DNA of 64,000 nucleotides from Zeaxanthinibacter sp. PT1 (GTDB lineage Bacteria; Bacteroidota; Bacteroidia; Flavobacteriales; Flavobacteriaceae). Numbering within the stretch: the first letter of the stretch is position 1; each line of letters opens with the position of its first letter. This document shows positions 49,453 through 56,057 of the stretch, one piece after another. Where the stretch lies: the NCBI RefSeq assembly GCF_028464225.1, contig NZ_JAQPCN010000005.1:62001-126000 (forward strand), written 5' to 3'. A model generated the notes under the pieces. The model saw only the letters and a list, made by a program, of their open reading frames with translations. It did no database searches and was not told where the DNA came from. The position numbers were made by a program, and so were the translations under genes.

Positions 49453-49650
49453 TAGCATTAATGTATCCGGTTGGAGTTTACACCAAGCTGTTAATTTGTA
49501 CTGTTGATGCTTTATTCTGACTTGTCTGAAAAGTTTCTCACTCTGCATTTTCACATTTTTCTATATTTCTAAATTGACTTCCAATAACGAAAGCCTCTTC
49601 CCCTAATTACCAGGAGTATATATTAACTCTTAAAGCTATCTTTGTCAGCT

Positions 49651-51402
49651 ATGATTGACAAAGATAAAAGTAAAGGAAAAGTTACTCTGGCTTCGGCTTT
49701 CAGAAGTATTGTCTGGCCCAGGCGAAACCTTTTGTTTGTAGGCCTTATACTTATTGTTATCGGTAGGTTGGCAGGCTTCGTACTGCCGCTGAAATCCAAA
49801 GAGTTGTTGGATGTCATTGTGCCCAACAAGGATATGCAAGGGCTTTATACGCTTTTATGGATGGTGGGGCTTGCCTTGCTGGTGCAGGCAGTGACCTCAT
49901 TTCTACTTACCAGGTTATTGAGTGTGCAGGCGCAATACCTGATCAGTGAGCTCAGGGCAGAGGTTCAGAAAAAGGTGTTATCCCTGCCGATCAGTTTTTT
50001 TGACAACAATAAATCAGGAGCCCTGGTATCCCGTATCATGTCTGATGTGGAGGGAGTAAGGAATCTCATCGGGACCGGGCTCGTGCAGTTGGTGGGTGGT
50101 ACAATTACGGCTGTAATCTCCCTGTTGTTATTGATTAATATTAATCCCTGGATGACCTTATTTGTTTTTCTGCCCGTGGCGATATTCGGGTACGTGGCTT
50201 TAAAAGCGTTTAAATATATTCGGCCGATATTCCGTGTGCGTGGGAAGATCAATGCGGAAGTGACCGGCAGACTGACGGAAACCCTTGCCGGGGTAAGGGT
50301 GATAAAGGGGTTTAATGCCGAGGCACAGGAACACCTGATCTTTGAAGAAGGAGTAGAAAGACTTTTTCAGAATGTAAAAAAGAGCCTTACCGCAACTGCC
50401 CTGATGACCAGTTCGTCAACATTCTTACTGGGGCTGGCCTCTGTGGGAATTATGGGCATCGGGGGTTATTATATGATCCAGTCCTCCATGACAACAGGCG
50501 ACTTTCTCTTGTTTACGTTGCTCCTTGGGTTCATGATTGCTCCTATTGTGCAAATGAGTAATATAGGAAGTCAATTGACCGAAGCGCTTGCAGGCCTGGA
50601 TCGTACTGAGGAATTGATGAATATGACCACCGAGGACGAAATGATGGACCGTCCTGTGGTGCTCGATGGAATACAGGGCAAGATCAGGTTGGATGAGGTG
50701 AGCTTTTCTTATGAAAAAGGCAAGCAGGTGCTTCATGATATCAGTTTTGAAGTCATGCCGGGAGAAGTGATTGCCTTGGTAGGCGGTTCGGGTTCCGGGA
50801 AATCGACCATAGCCGGACTCTGTTCCAGTTTTTTAACTCCGACCAAAGGAACCGTATTCATCGATGGGCATGATATGACTACCGTACAACTCAGCAGTTA
50901 TCGCAAGAATTTGGGGGTAGTGCTGCAAGACGAATTTTTATTTGAAGGTACCATCAGGCAGAATATATTATTTCCAAGGCCCGATGCCAGTGAATCAGAG
51001 CTGATGGCTGCCGTAGAGGCGGCTTATGTAAACGAGTTTACCGATAGGTTTGACGATGGGCTGGATACCCTGATCGGGGAACGCGGGGTAAAATTATCAG
51101 GGGGGCAGCGGCAGCGGATCTCGATCGCCCGGGCGATACTGGCAGACCCCCGGATCATCATCCTGGATGAAGCTACCTCTAACCTGGACACGGAGAGCGA
51201 AGGTCTCATACAGCGGTCTTTACAGGAATTGATCAAGGACCGGACTACGATCATCATTGCCCACAGGCTGAGTACTATTAAGAAGGCAGACCAGATCCTG
51301 GTCATAGAGAACGGGCGGATCGCCGAGACCGGCAATCATGATACTCTGATTGCAGCCGGCGGTCGCTACCACGACCTGTTTACCTACCAGGCGAAGATCT
51401 GA
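49651..51402 (+). CDS. ABC exporter, permease fused to ATPase (MsbA-like)
   Basis: Half-transporter of 583 residues from ATG 49651 (a TTG at 49642 would add three residues). Six-helix domain about 25-330, then an ATPase with Walker A GGSGSGKST, signature KLSGGQRQR, Walker B IIILDEATSNLD and switch IIAHRL, all canonical, in contrast to the exporter at 46035-47711. A TATCTTTG at 49637-49644 is only 6 bases before the ATG, which would make the transcript almost leaderless if it is the real -7 box. Substrate unknown; lipid or drug export is likely. Confidence 0.93.
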   Translation: MIDKDKSKGKVTLASAFRSIVWPRRNLLFVGLILIVIGRLAGFVLPLKSKELLDVIVPNKDMQGLYTLLWMVGLALLVQAVTSFLLTRLLSVQAQYLISELRAEVQKKVLSLPISFFDNNKSGALVSRIMSDVEGVRNLIGTGLVQLVGGTITAVISLLLLININPWMTLFVFLPVAIFGYVALKAFKYIRPIFRVRGKINAEVTGRLTETLAGVRVIKGFNAEAQEHLIFEEGVERLFQNVKKSLTATALMTSSSTFLLGLASVGIMGIGGYYMIQSSMTTGDFLLFTLLLGFMIAPIVQMSNIGSQLTEALAGLDRTEELMNMTTEDEMMDRPVVLDGIQGKIRLDEVSFSYEKGKQVLHDISFEVMPGEVIALVGGSGSGKSTIAGLCSSFLTPTKGTVFIDGHDMTTVQLSSYRKNLGVVLQDEFLFEGTIRQNILFPRPDASESELMAAVEAAYVNEFTDRFDDGLDTLIGERGVKLSGGQRQRISIARAILADPRIIILDEATSNLDTESEGLIQRSLQELIKDRTTIIIAHRLSTIKKADQILVIENGRIAETGNHDTLIAAGGRYHDLFTYQAKI

Positions 51403-51572
51403 GGAATATTTGAGAGTGACACGATTTCAAGGTTACAAGGTTACAGGGGGACAAAGTTACACAGGTACATAGGTACAACCCGCCCGTACCAAACGGCACG
51501 TTCGGGCGGGAGGGACATAGGGACAAGAGGGGATAGGGGATTGCAATTTTTTTATATGGAAAGATTTGTTTT

Positions 51573-51628
51573 GCTAACCGCTAACCGCTAACCGCTAACC
51601 GCTAACCGCTAACCGCTAACCGCTAACC
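51573..51628. repeat. Heptanucleotide array (GCTAACC)x8
   Basis: Eight perfect, uninterrupted copies of GCTAACC. No spacers, so not CRISPR. Perfect copies suggest copy number changes between strains. Confidence 0.97.
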
Positions 51629-51921
51629 AGAAGCCTCTGGCTCCACCCCGGTTCAAGGTTATAGCAGTTCCCTGCAGGAAGCATGCAGTAAGATGCGCTT
51701 CTATTCAGGCCGGGGTTCTTAACCCCGCCCCGGAGTCAAGATAAAAGATTTCAATGCAAAAAGCTTGCAGTCTGTTTAGTTACAACCTGACCGAAAGACG
51801 TTCAGTCGGGCGGGTGTTGTATGGTTACAGGGGGACAAAGGGACAAAGTTACACAGCTACCAAGGGACTGGTAGGTGTAGGTGATAGAAGTTCTGGGTAT
51901 ATGGAAAAGCAGTTTTTTTGT

Positions 51922-51970
51922 AAACTGCGAACCGCGAACTGCGAACTGCGAACTGCAAACTGCAAACTGC
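51922..51970. repeat. Heptanucleotide array, seven units of RAACYGC
   Basis: Units AAACTGC, GAACCGC, three GAACTGC and two AAACTGC, in register. Same period as the array 350 bp upstream and a related core (AACCGC/AACTGC), so both may come from one family. Confidence 0.93.
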
Positions 51971-52085
51971 AAACCCGCCCATGCCTTGCGGCTTATTCGG
52001 GCAGGCCATACTGCATCCAATGAAAAGTTCTATATATAGTTTATATTCGTTACTCTCTTTCAAAAAGTAATTCAAACCTTATCCT

Positions 52086-53675
52086 ATGAACATCTTCAAA
52101 TTATCCCTAACACTTCTATTGCTTATCGGCACTAGTGCTACAGCGCAGCAATCATTTTCCAAGGAACAGATCAATGAATTAAAAGCAGAAGTCGCTGCCT
52201 TGGTCGATGCGGACAAAAAACAAGCCCAGGTAATGGTAGACAAAATATTCAGCTTTGCAGAGCTTGGTTTTCAAGAGGTAGAAAGTTCAAAGTATCTTAC
52301 TGGTATTTTAGAGAACAATGGCTTTACGATAGAAAACTCTATTTCCGGAATTCCAACTGCCTGGTTTGCAGAGTGGAGTAACGGAGAGGGACCTACGATT
52401 GCTATTGGGAGTGACGTCGATTGCATTCCCAAAGCTTCACAATATCCGGGAGTGGCCTATCACAAACCCATGGTAGATGGTGCTCCTGGGCATGGTGAGG
52501 GCCATAATGCCGGAATTCCATTAAACATTACTGCGGTTTTAGCTGTGAAAAAGATTATGGAGCGGGAAAATATTGGCGGCACTTTAGTCGTGTGGCCGGG
52601 TATTGCTGAGGAGCTGGTAGCTGCCAAAGCATGGTATGTTCGTGATGGTCTTTTTGACAATATCGATATGTGCATTTTTACCCATGTGAGCAATAATCTA
52701 AGTGTTTCCTACGGTCCCGCTCGTGGCACAGGTCTTATTTCAGTTGAATATTCTTTTAAAGGTGAAGCGGCACATTCCGCTGGTTCACCATGGAGAGGCC
52801 GAAGTGCCCTGGACGCTGCTGAACTGATGAATATTGGATGGAATTATAAGCGAGAACACTTACATCCGTTAAGACGGTCGCATTCCATATTTACGGACGC
52901 GGGAGATCAGCCGAACGTAGTGCCTTCTAAGGCCTCTATTTGGTTTTATTTCAGAGATATTACCTATAAGGGAATTATGGATATGTATGCTACGGCTAAT
53001 GATATGGCCAAAGGGGCTGCGTTGATGACCGGTACCAAAATGACTTCAAAGGTATTGGGTGCTGCCTGGCCTCGGCACTTTAATAAAGTGATTGCAGAAA
53101 CAATGTACGAAAACATTAAGCAGGTGGGGCTGCCCGAGTGGTCGGAGGCTGATCAGACTTTGGCCAAAGCCGTTCAATCAGAAGTAAACTCTGAAGAAGT
53201 TGAGGGTTTGGCCATAAAACTAGACACCATTGGATTGCCGGTTATAGATCCGGTAAGTGGTGGTTCTGACGATATTGGTGATATTTCCTGGAAAGTACCC
53301 ACGGTGACTATGCGTTTTCCGTCCAATATTCCCGGTCTCCAGGGACATCATTGGAGCAATGCCATTGCTATGGCTACCCCCATTGCACATAAAGGTGTGG
53401 TAGCAGGAGCCAAAGCAGAAGCCATGACCATAATTGATTTTCTCACCCAGCCCGAATTACTGAGGCAGGCATGGGATTATTTCAATAATGAACAAACTAA
53501 GGAATCGAAATTTGAGCCTATGATTTCTGAATCTGATATGCCGCCAATTTATTTAAATCAGGATAAACAAGATCAATACAGAGCTCAGTTAAAAAAATTC
53601 TATTACGATGAAACTAAATATGATACTTATTTAGAGCAGATAGGGGTGGAATATCCTACGTTAAAGAAAGAATAG
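52086..53675 (+). CDS. Exported M20 family amidohydrolase (AbgB-like)
   Basis: Zinc-type amidohydrolase/peptidase of 529 residues with a signal peptide (1-21, ending ATAQ), so periplasmic. The M20D/AbgB layout is present: IGSDVDCIP (metal-bridging Asp region), GHGEGHNAG in place of the common GHACGHN, GIAEELVAAK with the catalytic/ligand Glu pair, and SGGSDDIGDISW near the C-terminal end. A dimerisation domain lies in the middle. AbgB cleaves p-aminobenzoyl-glutamate; this relative probably removes an acyl or aminoacyl group from a small amide. Product name beyond the family is not safe. Confidence 0.88.
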   Translation: MNIFKLSLTLLLLIGTSATAQQSFSKEQINELKAEVAALVDADKKQAQVMVDKIFSFAELGFQEVESSKYLTGILENNGFTIENSISGIPTAWFAEWSNGEGPTIAIGSDVDCIPKASQYPGVAYHKPMVDGAPGHGEGHNAGIPLNITAVLAVKKIMERENIGGTLVVWPGIAEELVAAKAWYVRDGLFDNIDMCIFTHVSNNLSVSYGPARGTGLISVEYSFKGEAAHSAGSPWRGRSALDAAELMNIGWNYKREHLHPLRRSHSIFTDAGDQPNVVPSKASIWFYFRDITYKGIMDMYATANDMAKGAALMTGTKMTSKVLGAAWPRHFNKVIAETMYENIKQVGLPEWSEADQTLAKAVQSEVNSEEVEGLAIKLDTIGLPVIDPVSGGSDDIGDISWKVPTVTMRFPSNIPGLQGHHWSNAIAMATPIAHKGVVAGAKAEAMTIIDFLTQPELLRQAWDYFNNEQTKESKFEPMISESDMPPIYLNQDKQDQYRAQLKKFYYDETKYDTYLEQIGVEYPTLKKE

Positions 53676-53865
53676 CAAATCTATCTAGAGAAAATCAGAA
53701 GACACTTTCTATTTAAAATGACCTCACGAGGAGTACTCGCTTCACTCGTGATCCTTTGTGCCCAATGTTGCAAATACAAAACCCTTTAAAGCCATTCGGC
53801 TTTGTGCTTCTTTCTTCGTCCCCGTCTTACGAAAGCGTGGCTTTCGACGCCGGTGCCTAATAAAG

Positions 53866-53914
53866 AACCCCGCACTTGCGTGCAGGGTTTTGTGAGTGTC
53901 GTGACCTCGCCAGG
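53866..53914 (-). repeat. tRNA-Arg 3'-end remnant plus terminator, module 1
   Basis: On the minus strand, the last 14 bases of the tRNA-Arg repeat unit (53901-53914) are followed by a hairpin with 10-pair arms (53866-53875 and 53880-53889). One pair is a G-U that only forms on the minus strand, which supports this reading direction. Confidence 0.7.
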
Positions 53915-54061
53915 CTTGCCAGACGTAGCTTTAGCGAAGGCAGGATTATTTCATGATCCTGATTTACTCCCCTTTGCAAATAGAAAGTCCATGGGCTGCC
54001 GCCCATGTCTTTTCGTTTTACTACACATTCTGAAAGCAAAGCTTTCAATGTTCCGTAAAAC

Positions 54062-54117
54062 AAAAAATCCATCACTTAGGTGATGGACTTTCTGCTTGTA
54101 GTGACCTCGCCAGGATT
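54062..54117 (-). repeat. tRNA-Arg 3'-end remnant plus terminator, module 2
   Basis: Seventeen bases identical to the tRNA-Arg 3' end (54101-54117) followed on the minus strand by a perfect 8-pair hairpin (54068-54075 and 54080-54087) and six U (54062-54067). Same layout as the intact gene and its terminator. Confidence 0.75.
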
Positions 54118-54234
54118 CACCTTCGGCGCATTCTGGCTTTCCCGTAGTCTACATCAAAAGCTGCAGCCCTGCGGTCTGCATGGCCTTCTTCATTCCCCTT
54201 CAGCCTGGGAGCGAACTCCCGGCCTCGGAAAATG

Positions 54235-54260
54235 AAAAAAGCCCGCACTTGCGTGCGAGC
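54235..54260 (-). terminator. Terminator of the truncated tRNA-Arg copy (module 3)
   Basis: Eight-pair arms (54241-54248 and 54253-54260) with a TTGC-type loop and six U on the minus strand. One pair is G-U on the minus strand only. It lies 13 bases beyond the truncated tRNA end at 54274. Confidence 0.8.
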
Positions 54261-54273
54261 TTTTGATGCTTAA

Positions 54274-54317
54274 GTGACCTCGCCAGGATTCAAACCTGGA
54301 ACCTTCTGAGCCGTAAT
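54274..54317 (-). pseudogene. Truncated tRNA-Arg (3' part only), putative att site
   Basis: Identical over 44 bases to 55983-56026 of the intact tRNA-Arg. The D-arm and 5' acceptor strand are missing, so it cannot make a tRNA. Unlike the intact gene it does not encode the CCA end. Confidence 0.9.
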
Positions 54318-54369
54318 TAGGGCTACACCGTCAATGATTACAATGCCTGAAGAGGATAATTATCATTTA

Positions 54370-54390
54370 TCGTACAATTTAAGTACAAAA
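54370..54390. repeat. GTACAA direct-repeat site, left end of the mini-island
   Basis: Two GTACAA units 11 bp apart (54372 and 54383) within a 21-bp block nearly identical to the blocks at 55847-55867 and 55889-55909. It lies 53 bases inside the left 44-bp repeat. Confidence 0.75.
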
Positions 54391-54495
54391 AATAACGCAT
54401 TATTTCGGGTGTTTTATAGCGCAATAATTTACTTTATTATAAATGGATTTTGTAGGAAAATTATATTTCAAGGCAACCGCAAATGATATTTCTAA

Positions 54496-55287
54496 TTAAA
54501 AAGGCAATTCAGTTTTATCAATAACTTCCTTATAGAGGTAAACACATAAAATTATTGTAGCTGCGGATACATAAATTAGAATAATTACTCTAGGAGACCA
54601 TAAAATATTACTCTTCATAGGCTTTTTATAATTTTCATCCAGTCTAGCTATTATTTTATCTTTAATTTCTAAACCTCTTTGAAAACTTAAAACAAGTAGA
54701 AAGGTAATATTCAAAAACAAGGTAGCGAGAATTACTGTTAACATTTCTTTCTTACTTGATGGGGTTTTAGGAAAGACTTGTTTTAGTTCTGCATTTAAAA
54801 CATAGGCATCAGCTATAGCATGACTTTTTTCGTTGCCGGTGTAAGTAATTTGCAATTCAACTCCAAAATTAGGATCGAAATAATCCCAGTCCAATATTAA
54901 AAACTCTTTAATCTTTTTAATTCGGAAATTACTCAAATTTGGATGTGTCTCATGCGTAATTTTATAATCTAGAATTTTAGCGTCATCTGTAATATAGATC
55001 TTGAAGTCTTTTCGTAAGTCTGACTTTTTAATCTCTAATTCTCCGTTGTTCCAAATAACTATACTAGTGACATATACATTATCTACAATTAAGGTCGAAT
55101 CGTTAGCATAGAGTTTAATATTCGGAGCGGAATTATTTTTGTCAAATATTAATGACGGTTCCTTTTTAATGGCATAAACTGGTTCTCGCTTTTTATCTCC
55201 TAGGTAATAACCAATAAAGAATAAAAGGATGGCCACTATTAATCCTGTTATTCCCCAGAAAGTATTCGACCCAAAAAGATTTTTCAT
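54496..55287 (-). CDS. Membrane protein of unknown function (mini-island cargo)
   Basis: Protein of 263 residues that I do not recognise. One N-terminal helix (about 10-30) is followed by a predicted extracytoplasmic or cytosolic beta-rich region (35-175; DNSTLIV-like strands, IVIWNNGELEIKKSDL, FLILDWDYFDPNFGVELQITYTG, shown in parts), then two helices (about 183-203 and 233-252) separated by a short charged loop. The start ATG 55287 is clear. Codon use is AT-rich, unlike neighbouring core genes. It lies 184 bases downstream of the XRE regulator on the same strand. It could be an effector, a superinfection or defence protein, or an unrelated passenger. Confidence 0.75.
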   Translation of the reverse strand: MKNLFGSNTFWGITGLIVAILLFFIGYYLGDKKREPVYAIKKEPSLIFDKNNSAPNIKLYANDSTLIVDNVYVTSIVIWNNGELEIKKSDLRKDFKIYITDDAKILDYKITHETHPNLSNFRIKKIKEFLILDWDYFDPNFGVELQITYTGNEKSHAIADAYVLNAELKQVFPKTPSSKKEMLTVILATLFLNITFLLVLSFQRGLEIKDKIIARLDENYKKPMKSNILWSPRVIILIYVSAATIILCVYLYKEVIDKTELPF

Positions 55288-55471: not shown

Positions 55472-55798
55472 TTATATTTTATTTAATGCTGAGTTTAATT
55501 TTTCTTTAATTTCTCTCTTAATAAAGGCGTTCCATTTTGGATTTAACTCTAATTGCTCCCTGTGTAAGGTTAACCATTGAATTAATTCATCAAGATCTAT
55601 TTCTTGAAGCTTTTTAGTAGTTCTTTTATTTTCGTGTAACAGACTTTTTAACTGTGACTTTCGTGATTGTGGGATTTTCCCTCCTGCTTCATAATTTTGG
55701 ATAGTCCTTACCGCCACTCCAAGTATAGATGCCAAATCATCTTGCTTGAGTTTATTCACTTTGCGATAGTCAATAATTTCTTTTCCAGTTATTTCCAT
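55472..55798 (-). CDS. XRE family helix-turn-helix regulator (mini-island)
   Basis: Protein of 108 residues. Residues 6-56 form a Cro/CI-type helix-turn-helix (LKQDDLASILGVAVRTIQNYEAGGKIP); residues 60-108 are a Lys/Glu-rich helical tail without a peptidase or cupin domain. It is the first gene of the mini-island reading from the tRNA. Three GTACAA-type sites lie within 110 bases upstream of its start (55819-55909), so it may bind them and repress itself. Small XRE proteins are typical of phage, satellites and genomic islands. Confidence 0.88.
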   Translation of the reverse strand: MEITGKEIIDYRKVNKLKQDDLASILGVAVRTIQNYEAGGKIPQSRKSQLKSLLHENKRTTKKLQEIDLDELIQWLTLHREQLELNPKWNAFIKREIKEKLNSALNKI

Positions 55799-55818: not shown

Positions 55819-55909
55819 TTGTACGGTGGGGAAAAATTAAGGAGTATCGTACAATTTGCGTACAAAATTGTAGAAAATTTACGGTAAATCGTACAATTTG
55901 CGTGCAAAA
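55819..55909. promoter_or_regulatory. Cluster of GTACAA sites upstream of the XRE gene
   Basis: An inverted TTGTAC at 55819-55824, then two 21-bp blocks at 55847-55867 and 55889-55909 that are identical except one base, exactly 42 bp apart (four helical turns). Each block has two GTACAA/GTGCAA units 11 bp apart. A third block is at the far end of the island (54370-54390). They are candidate operators of the XRE protein or arm sites for a recombinase. Confidence 0.65.
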
Positions 55910-55949
55910 AAATGTAAATTATACAGGGAAAAGGAATAGTGCAGATACT

Positions 55950-55974: not shown

Positions 55975-55983
55975 TTCGGGTGG

Positions 55984-56057
55984 TGACCTCGCCAGGATTC
56001 AAACCTGGAACCTTCTGAGCCGTAATCAGATGCGCTATTCAGTTGCGCCACGAGGCC
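55984..56057 (-). tRNA. tRNA-Arg (ACG)
   Basis: Complete 74-base cloverleaf on the minus strand: acceptor GGCCTCG with CGAGGTC (one G-U pair), D-arm GCGC...GCGC, anticodon stem TCTGA/TCAGA with loop TTACGGC giving anticodon ACG, and T-arm CCAGG TTTGAAT CCTGG. The CCA end is encoded (55981-55983), unlike the tRNA-Glu genes. Its 3' half is the target of the direct repeats described for the mini-island. Confidence 0.96.

What the first reader, a model, noticed from the sequence alone, without database searches (positions are those of the whole stretch)
53866..54317. Three tRNA-Arg 3'-end remnants in a row, each with its own terminator
At 53901-53914, 54101-54117 and 54274-54317 the end of tRNA-Arg recurs in the same orientation, each followed on the minus strand by a different hairpin plus U-run, as in the intact gene at 55984. 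This looks like a history of repeated integrations at one tRNA, where every element brought its own tRNA end and terminator and then lost its cargo. A decayed fourth may be at 53719-53732. An alternative is decay of a former tandem tRNA-Arg array.
Basis: partly seen in the sequence, partly recalled or inferred. Interest (0 to 1): 0.7.

Follow-up and report, generated by a model that had tools for sequence, protein, structure and literature searches.

The report
Tail-duplicating terminator cassettes behind tRNA-Arg
Behind this bacterium's arginine tRNA gene lie stacked scraps of the tRNA's last 17 letters, most with their own stop signal; similar stacks occur behind tRNA genes of many relatives and look like tiny gene-free DNA units that repeatedly slip in behind tRNAs without breaking them.

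Summary
In detail: the tRNA-Arg 3' end (14 nt) occurs exactly 4 times in the 3.34-Mb genome, all at this locus, and the intact gene and three copies are each followed by a different hairpin. The fourth copy is weak. The explanation is partly right. The 47-nt copy (54274-54320) looks like an integrase repeat; Kriegella has a 7.6-kb integrase island with a 48-nt one. The short copies differ. In Flavobacteriaceae loci they mostly run from A58 to C74 and bound gene-free units, 36 of 50 in two size classes near 97 and 152 nt, often with outer inverted repeats. One cassette occurs in several genera and behind different tRNA-Arg genes with the local tail: 11 exact copies, 8 tail sequences. One genome has two homologous cassettes in opposite order at two tRNA genes. 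Muriicola and Z. enoshimensis differ by one unit at the tail edge. Best reading: short cassettes insert behind tRNAs with tail duplication; enzyme unknown. Vertical inheritance with loss and local duplication are not excluded. Closest known: E. coli tyrT/RtT repeats, same A58 edge. Array decay is disfavoured.

The parts
55981..56057 (-). intact tRNA-Arg(ACG)
   Evidence: ARAGORN, Rfam RF00005 58 bits
55953..55978 (-). terminator hairpin T1, directly behind the intact tRNA
   Evidence: fold z -4.05
55472..55798 (-). helix-turn-helix regulator ORF, 108 aa, cargo of the 1.7-kb element
   Evidence: PF01381 1.6e-5, 25.3 bits against cut-off 23
54496..55287 (-). ORF of 263 aa, cargo of the 1.7-kb element, function unknown; hydrophobic segments read by eye
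   Evidence: no Pfam family at its cut-off; match in 5 of 249 family genomes, itself included
55831..55914 (.). two copies of a TCGTACAATTTGCGTRCAAA repeat near the tRNA end of the element (operator or arm site, inferred)
   Evidence: family D3
54354..54395 (.). third, more diverged copy (69%) of the same repeat near the far end of the element
   Evidence: family D3
54274..54320 (-). long copy of the tRNA 3' half (46 of 47, anticodon loop to C74), integrase-type repeat (inferred)
   Evidence: Kriegella parallel
54118..54273 (-). cassette A (156 nt): terminator T2 at 54237-54264, outer inverted repeat 54258-54268 / 54152-54162
54101..54117 (-). short tail copy B (A58-C74, exact)
53918..54100 (-). 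cassette B (183 nt): terminator T3 at 54068-54087, outer inverted repeat 54083-54093 / 53982-53992; 149-bp stretch 53969-54117 shared at 96% with Z. enoshimensis
53901..53917 (-). short tail copy C (16 of 17)
53866..53889 (-). hairpin T4 behind tail copy C
   Evidence: z -4.54, poor U-run
53719..53735 (-). possible decayed fourth tail copy, unproven
   Evidence: 13 of 17 by my count; no hairpin

Best explanation
The locus is a stack of tail-duplicating cassettes. A short, gene-free, hairpin-rich unit inserts in the T-arm/3'-end region of a tRNA gene so that the gene keeps, or regains, its last 17 nt (A58-C74) and now ends in the cassette's terminator. The old terminator is pushed away, led by a second copy of the same 17 nt. 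Repetition gives tRNA - T_new - tail - T_old - tail - T_older. In this window cassette B is the older insertion, shared with Z. enoshimensis. Cassette A came later in this lineage, while Z. enoshimensis received a different cassette at the same nucleotide. Afterwards a conventional integrase-type element, now 1.7 kb, entered through the anticodon loop and left the 47-nt copy. Shown: the edges, sizes and inverted repeats, covariation in one cassette family, near-identical cassettes in different genera, one-unit differences between loci, and tails that mostly match the local tRNA. Inferred: that cassettes insert as units with a 17-bp duplication, and the order of events in the window. Unknown: the enzyme. 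Many displaced copies also carry, by eye, an extra hairpin where T-loop bases 54-57 should be, as E. coli tyrT does; whether this comes with insertion or later is open.
For: 12-mer matching of whole tRNAs, with no preset edge, over 119 contexts: 36 tail matches downstream, 25 of 36 starting exactly at A58. Profile of 50 short copies at 39 tRNA genes (chosen by tail match): identity 0.08-0.18 at 53-57, 0.82-1.00 at 58-74, 0.28 at +1. Units: 36 of 50 within 94-106 or 144-163 nt. Outer inverted repeat of 9 bp or more in 18 of 49 units, 3.0% of 1960 shuffles. One cassette is 89-98% identical across genera where the neighbouring APRT gene is 63-68%, six genomes, 84 nt. Displaced trailers: 36 of 45 closer to one in another genome than to any in their own array; 18 of 45 at least 80% identical to a trailer directly behind an intact tRNA-Arg elsewhere, 0 of 225 shuffles. 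One-unit differences: Muriicola 1-162 = Z. enoshimensis 115-276 (84%), Flagellimonas 1-189 = Allomuricauda 124-305 (77%); Arenibacter certesii 1-100 = A. latericius 248-348 (92%), which has two units more; alignments begin at the first tail base. Genome G161: homologous cassettes (88% and 83%) in opposite order behind tRNA-Arg(TCG) and (TCT), each with the local tail. 11 exact copies behind the same cassette carry 8 tail sequences.
Against: No enzyme is identified and no moving unit was seen. The one cassette tested was absent from plasmids, phages and, as an exact 28-mer, viral contigs; the window's own cassettes were not tested there. 9 of 45 trailers are closest to a neighbour in their own array, so tandem duplication also occurs, and 21 of 45 have no relative at 80% anywhere. 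The covarying stems could mean selection for an RNA function with vertical inheritance and frequent loss: G002 of the same genus also has the cassette of Z. enoshimensis, so the window lineage may have lost it. One gene was the yardstick and no tree was built. The compared loci are of different genera. Some tails are not the host's: both copies in G303 share two differences from its tRNA, and G021 has a 26-nt copy 5.7 kb away with another T-stem base. 31 of 49 units lack a 9-bp outer repeat. The link of the preceding hairpin to the host T-stem is weak (22 of 49 against 28% for swapped partners). The profile is inflated inside 58-74 by selection of copies. Many loci were chosen for their likeness to the cassette.
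Confidence: 0.55

Rival explanations
1. Tandem accretion of decayed tyrosine-recombinase elements (CIMEs): each element brought its own tRNA 3' end and terminator and lost everything else.
For: Integrases often use tRNA 3' ends, and CIME accretion is described in PMC5704250 (passages). The 47-48-nt copies here and in Kriegella fit it; Kriegella has an integrase beside its copy. G021 has a 26-nt copy 5.7 kb from its tRNA with a foreign base.
Against: The largest of 50 short-copy units is 280 nt (search range 2.3 kb, and 8 kb where held for the 31 loci). 36 of 50 fall in two size classes and one family keeps covarying stems. The tail mostly follows the local tRNA, not the cassette. Copies start at A58, inside the 7-nt T-loop, so a shared T-loop crossover region is missing (inference from recalled integrase biology).
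Confidence: 0.2
2. Local tandem duplication of tRNA tail plus terminator, followed by hairpin insertion in the T-loop and divergence; or vertical inheritance of functional trailer units with frequent loss.
For: E. coli tyrV has three A58-bounded copies of one near-identical unit. 9 of 45 trailers are closest to a neighbour in their array. Behind tRNA-Leu(CAG) the terminator itself is duplicated. Stems of the common cassette covary.
Against: 36 of 45 trailers are closer to ones in other genomes; one-unit differences with unrelated units; opposite order of two cassettes in G161.
Confidence: 0.2
3. Decay of a former tandem tRNA-Arg array.
For: G037 has two full tRNA-Arg genes plus a tail copy; tRNA-Asn of this genome has longer pseudo-copies.
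Against: 1 of 31 loci has a second full tRNA-Arg; copies mostly end sharply at A58 instead of fading.
Confidence: 0.03

Closest known systems
E. coli tyrT/tyrV downstream repeats (RtT RNA, Rfam RF00391; tpr)
   Same: Copies of the tRNA 3' end downstream of the tRNA that begin exactly at A58, with a hairpin-rich insert at the T-loop (by eye).
   Different: E. coli copies run to A76, belong to near-identical 178-bp repeats, and RF00391 matches there 4 times; here units differ within an array, recur across genera, bring different terminators, and reach no Rfam gathering score.
CIMEs and tandem accretion of integrative elements at tRNA genes
   Same: Direct repeats of a tRNA 3' end stacked at one tRNA; the 47-nt copy fits.
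   Different: Short units carry no genes, mostly have two sizes, and mostly do not carry the tail with them.
Casposons / Cas1-type integration at tRNA 3' ends
   Same: Target-site duplication at a tRNA 3' end, 14-15 bp (PMC6977970, passages).
   Different: 17 nt here; no Cas1 match in the window genome or in G003; no casposon genes between the tails.
Tyrosine-recombinase islands such as the one in Kriegella sp. EG-1
   Same: Explains the 47-nt copy and the 1.7-kb element.
   Different: The two ORFs of the 1.7-kb element show no integrase.

Membership tests
CIME / decayed tyrosine-recombinase element | flanked by attL/attR direct repeats of a tRNA 3' end | tested here: met
CIME / decayed tyrosine-recombinase element | repeat includes the whole crossover (overlap) region of the tRNA arm used | tested here: inconclusive
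   short copies start at A58, identity 0.08-0.18 at 53-57, but where a recombinase would cross over is not known; the 47-nt copy would include it
CIME / decayed tyrosine-recombinase element | the incoming element carries its own tRNA tail | tested here: not met
   one cassette with 8 different, local tails; exceptions in G303 and G021
CIME / decayed tyrosine-recombinase element | can be excised by a recombinase in trans | not testable with these tools
   -
E. coli tyrT/RtT repeats | downstream tail copies beginning at A58 | tested here: met
E. coli tyrT/RtT repeats | match to Rfam RF00391 | tested here: not met
   none at gathering score in the window; none up to E 1 in the four flavobacterial loci given
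E. coli tyrT/RtT repeats | processed RNA product | not testable with these tools
   -
Casposon / Cas1-type transposition | Cas1-family integrase available in the genome | tested here: not met
   0 of 2 Zeaxanthinibacter genomes; 1 match in G161
Casposon / Cas1-type transposition | 14-15-bp target duplication | tested here: not met
   17 nt in 25 of 36
tRNA array remnant | full tRNA genes at the same place in relatives | tested here: not met
   1 of 31 loci has a second full gene

The most novel reading that the evidence does not exclude
A widespread class of minimal mobile units (about 97 or 152 nt, no genes) inserts at one nucleotide position of tRNA genes with a 17-bp duplication, keeps the tRNA whole and swaps its terminator. 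The shared A58 edge in E. coli tyrT would mean one mechanism acting in two phyla.
Probability: 0.3. Interest if true: 0.85.

Novelty: new variant of a known kind. Interest (0 to 1): 0.62.

Why it matters
tRNA 3' ends are the classic entry points of large mobile elements. This suggests a second kind of traffic there: tiny units that change how a tRNA gene terminates, with a sharp edge inside the T-loop. It also gives the long-known E. coli tyrT repeats (literature recalled, origin unexplained as far as I know) a comparative setting with loci that differ by one unit, so their origin becomes testable. For annotation, it warns that a 17-nt tRNA tail repeat need not mark a lost genomic island.

Tried and rejected
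Dispersed repeat: the 14-mer occurs exactly 4 times in the genome, all here. CAAAGCGGAGCTTTG, part of the common cassette, occurs at 22 places in 8 of 60 genomes (own included, 0 there); 16 of the 22 lie close to a tRNA-Arg gene, and the other 6, on one G011 contig, showed no tRNA in the two of their loci that I scanned. Known RNA family: no gathering-score match for these cassettes in what was scanned (weak matches below it were listed). Plasmid, phage or viral origin of that cassette: no match. Resident Cas1 as the enzyme: none in the two Zeaxanthinibacter genomes. Coding content between the tails: no family match for the two ORFs tested. Reverse-transcription stop at m1A58: considered for the A58 edge and dropped, because E. 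coli shows the same edge and (recalled) lacks that modification. Literature: in the listings (20 of 204 papers shown) I saw no paper on such arrays; the tyrT papers are recalled, not read.

Failed or redone: one search used a bad key; one search crashed and became; a comparison with free end gaps was useless and was redone. Searches had two faults found on checking: the copy of Z. enoshimensis had been merged with the identical but truncated context of G002 and so dropped, and two loci of one genome (L104, L112) counted as different genomes; searches also included two long copies. One search repeats those counts with both mended and is the one cited; the results hardly moved and I left the odds as they were. 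One search's 22 of 49 was not redone.

Rows dropped: of the 26 loci, L069, L075 and L077 were not scanned for tRNAs, L063 and L071 had no tRNA-Arg, and the same locus as L053 (L043) was set aside. The 31 loci are what remained and the window; L044 and L073 are cut by contig ends, and one of the 17 without a copy (A. certesii) shows a decayed one with 4 mismatches. Tandem Glu genes, long copies and E. coli were left out's counts of short copies.

Full report
Observation. The chance expectation for the 17-mer in the window with up to 3 mismatches is 0.11 against 4 found, and the exact 14-mer occurs 4 times in the whole genome, all at this locus. Each copy, and the intact gene, is followed on the minus strand by a different stable hairpin. 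The fourth copy near 53719 is not convincing.

Relatives. The order tRNA-Arg(ACG) - adenine phosphoribosyltransferase (APRT) is conserved in many relatives, so the place can be compared. Of 31 loci (window included), 14 hold at least one copy with up to 2 mismatches within the up to 8 kb searched, and 17 hold none, two of these cut by contig ends. One, G037, has a second complete tRNA-Arg.

Two classes of copy. Long copies (anticodon loop to C74) bound kilobase cargo in two cases: 1.7 kb here, 7.6 kb in Kriegella sp. EG-1, where a tyrosine recombinase (PF00589, 2e-9; PF13102, 2e-15) lies beside the displaced 48-nt copy. That is ordinary integration and I take 54274-54320 to be the same. Short copies are different. 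A 12-mer search with whole tRNAs over 119 contexts found 43 matches within 800 bp downstream; 36 reach the 3' end, and 25 of the 36 start exactly at A58. The other 7 are decayed tails or inner pieces; 16 matches lie upstream, mostly tRNA 5' parts. In 50 short copies at 39 tRNA genes of 33 genomes, identity to the own tRNA is 0.12 at position 57, 0.88 at 58, 0.94 at 74 and 0.28 at the next base; since these copies were chosen by their tail, the edge itself rests.

Anatomy of the units. Between one tail and the next lie 94-106 nt in 19 and 144-163 nt in 17 of 50 units; the longest is 280, with a search range of 2.3 kb. Outer inverted repeats of at least 9 bp occur in 18 of 49 units against 3.0% of shuffled ones; in 8 units they start 6-9 nt after C74 and end at nt 113-125, among them both window cassettes and one behind tRNA-Lys of this genome. 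The common short cassette (query from Z. enoshimensis, tRNA tails included) gives a match at E 1e-3 in 100 of 299 genomes of the family, some of them weak or only tails, but in 13 of 296 across the phylum, 12 of the same family. In 36 aligned copies behind tRNA-Arg genes, picked by their central hairpin, 12 of 29 base pairs show changes on both sides, 0 of 500 shuffles as high; related sequences can inflate such counts.

Insertion. In Z. enoshimensis a unit shared with the window (149 bp, 96%, window 53969-54117) is separated from the tRNA by the common short cassette; in the window it is separated by cassette A and the 1.7-kb element. A Muriicola MAG has a homologous unit directly behind its tRNA: its nt 1-162 align to 115-276 in Z. 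enoshimensis and its nt 1-149 to 1881-2031 in the window. Flagellimonas and Allomuricauda (1-189 = 124-305, 77%) and Arenibacter certesii and A. latericius (1-100 = 248-348, 92%, with one more copy between) look alike. Over all, 18 of 45 displaced trailers are at least 80% identical to a trailer directly behind an intact tRNA-Arg in another genome, 0 of 225 shuffles; 36 of 45 are closer to another genome's unit than to any in their own array, 9 of 45 the reverse, and 21 of 45 have no relative at 80%.

The tail is mostly local. The same cassette sits behind tRNA-Arg(ACG), (TCG) and (TCT); 11 exact tail copies behind it carry 8 different sequences. In genome G161 homologous cassettes occur behind tRNA-Arg(TCG) and tRNA-Arg(TCT) in opposite order, each time with the tail of the local tRNA. 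An element that carries its own tRNA end does not predict this; a target duplication does. Exceptions: both copies in G303 share two differences from its tRNA, and G021 has a 26-nt copy 5.7 kb away with one foreign base. Identity of the cassette across genera is 89-98% where APRT is 63-68% (six genomes); this can mean transfer or strong selection, and I built no trees.

Generality. In this genome, tail copies with up to 2 mismatches also lie behind tRNA-Trp, Lys, Asn, Leu(CAA), Leu(CAG) and Leu(TAG): 6 of 39 tRNAs in the 28 stretches fetched, the neighbouring Glu pair not counted; none upstream except that pair. E. coli K-12 tyrV is followed by three copies AATCCTTCCCCCACCACCA that begin at A58 by canonical numbering; RF00391 (RtT) matches that region 4 times. 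The tyrT literature is recalled, not read.

Mechanism and limits. I favour insertion of short cassettes with tail duplication (0.55). The enzyme is unknown: no Cas1 in the two Zeaxanthinibacter genomes, no genes in the cassettes. Many displaced copies have a hairpin in place of T-loop bases 54-57, seen by eye; its link to the host T-stem is weak (22 of 49 against 28% for swapped partners). Rivals are CIME-type decay (0.2), local duplication or vertical inheritance (0.2) and array decay (0.03). Papers: PMC6977970 and PMC5704250 were seen as passages; all others only as search listings.

Noticed in passing
L104, L088, L092, L062 (upstream of tRNA-Arg): GIY-YIG ORFs (PF01541, 1e-17 to 7e-15) lie directly upstream of intact tRNA-Arg genes, each preceded by a copy of the tRNA 5' part (positions 1 to about 15-22, in places further) that is interrupted in the D-loop by palindromes (by eye); in tandem in L104, L088 and L092. 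It looks like a tRNA-restoring insertion on the 5' side.
   Followed up: partly
L141 (G000:C1, downstream of tRNA-Asn): A 549-bp tandem repeat with two nearly identical GIY-YIG ORFs and tRNA-Asn pseudo-copies; by eye, hairpins inserted in the anticodon region, the T-arm and a terminator loop.
   Followed up: partly
G000:C3:380418-380587: Two partial matches (83%) to the Z. enoshimensis cassette lie just behind tRNA-Arg(TCT) of the window genome.
   Followed up: no
window 49642-53675: An ABC transporter gene (PF00664, PF00005) and a gene with an M20 dimerisation domain lie between the array and the formyltransferase-like gene here but not at that place in Z. enoshimensis; whether they are elsewhere there was not searched.
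   Followed up: no
L105, upstream of tRNA-Arg(TCG): 58-bp tandem repeat of the tRNA 5' end plus a palindrome, without an ORF seen.
   Followed up: no
G014:C14:118148-118366; G011:C44 and C71: Arrays of CAAAGCGGAGCTTTG spaced 102 bp (G014, beside tRNA-Arg(TCG)) or 39-80 bp (G011, at contig ends, C71 beside tRNA-Arg(TCG)).
   Followed up: partly
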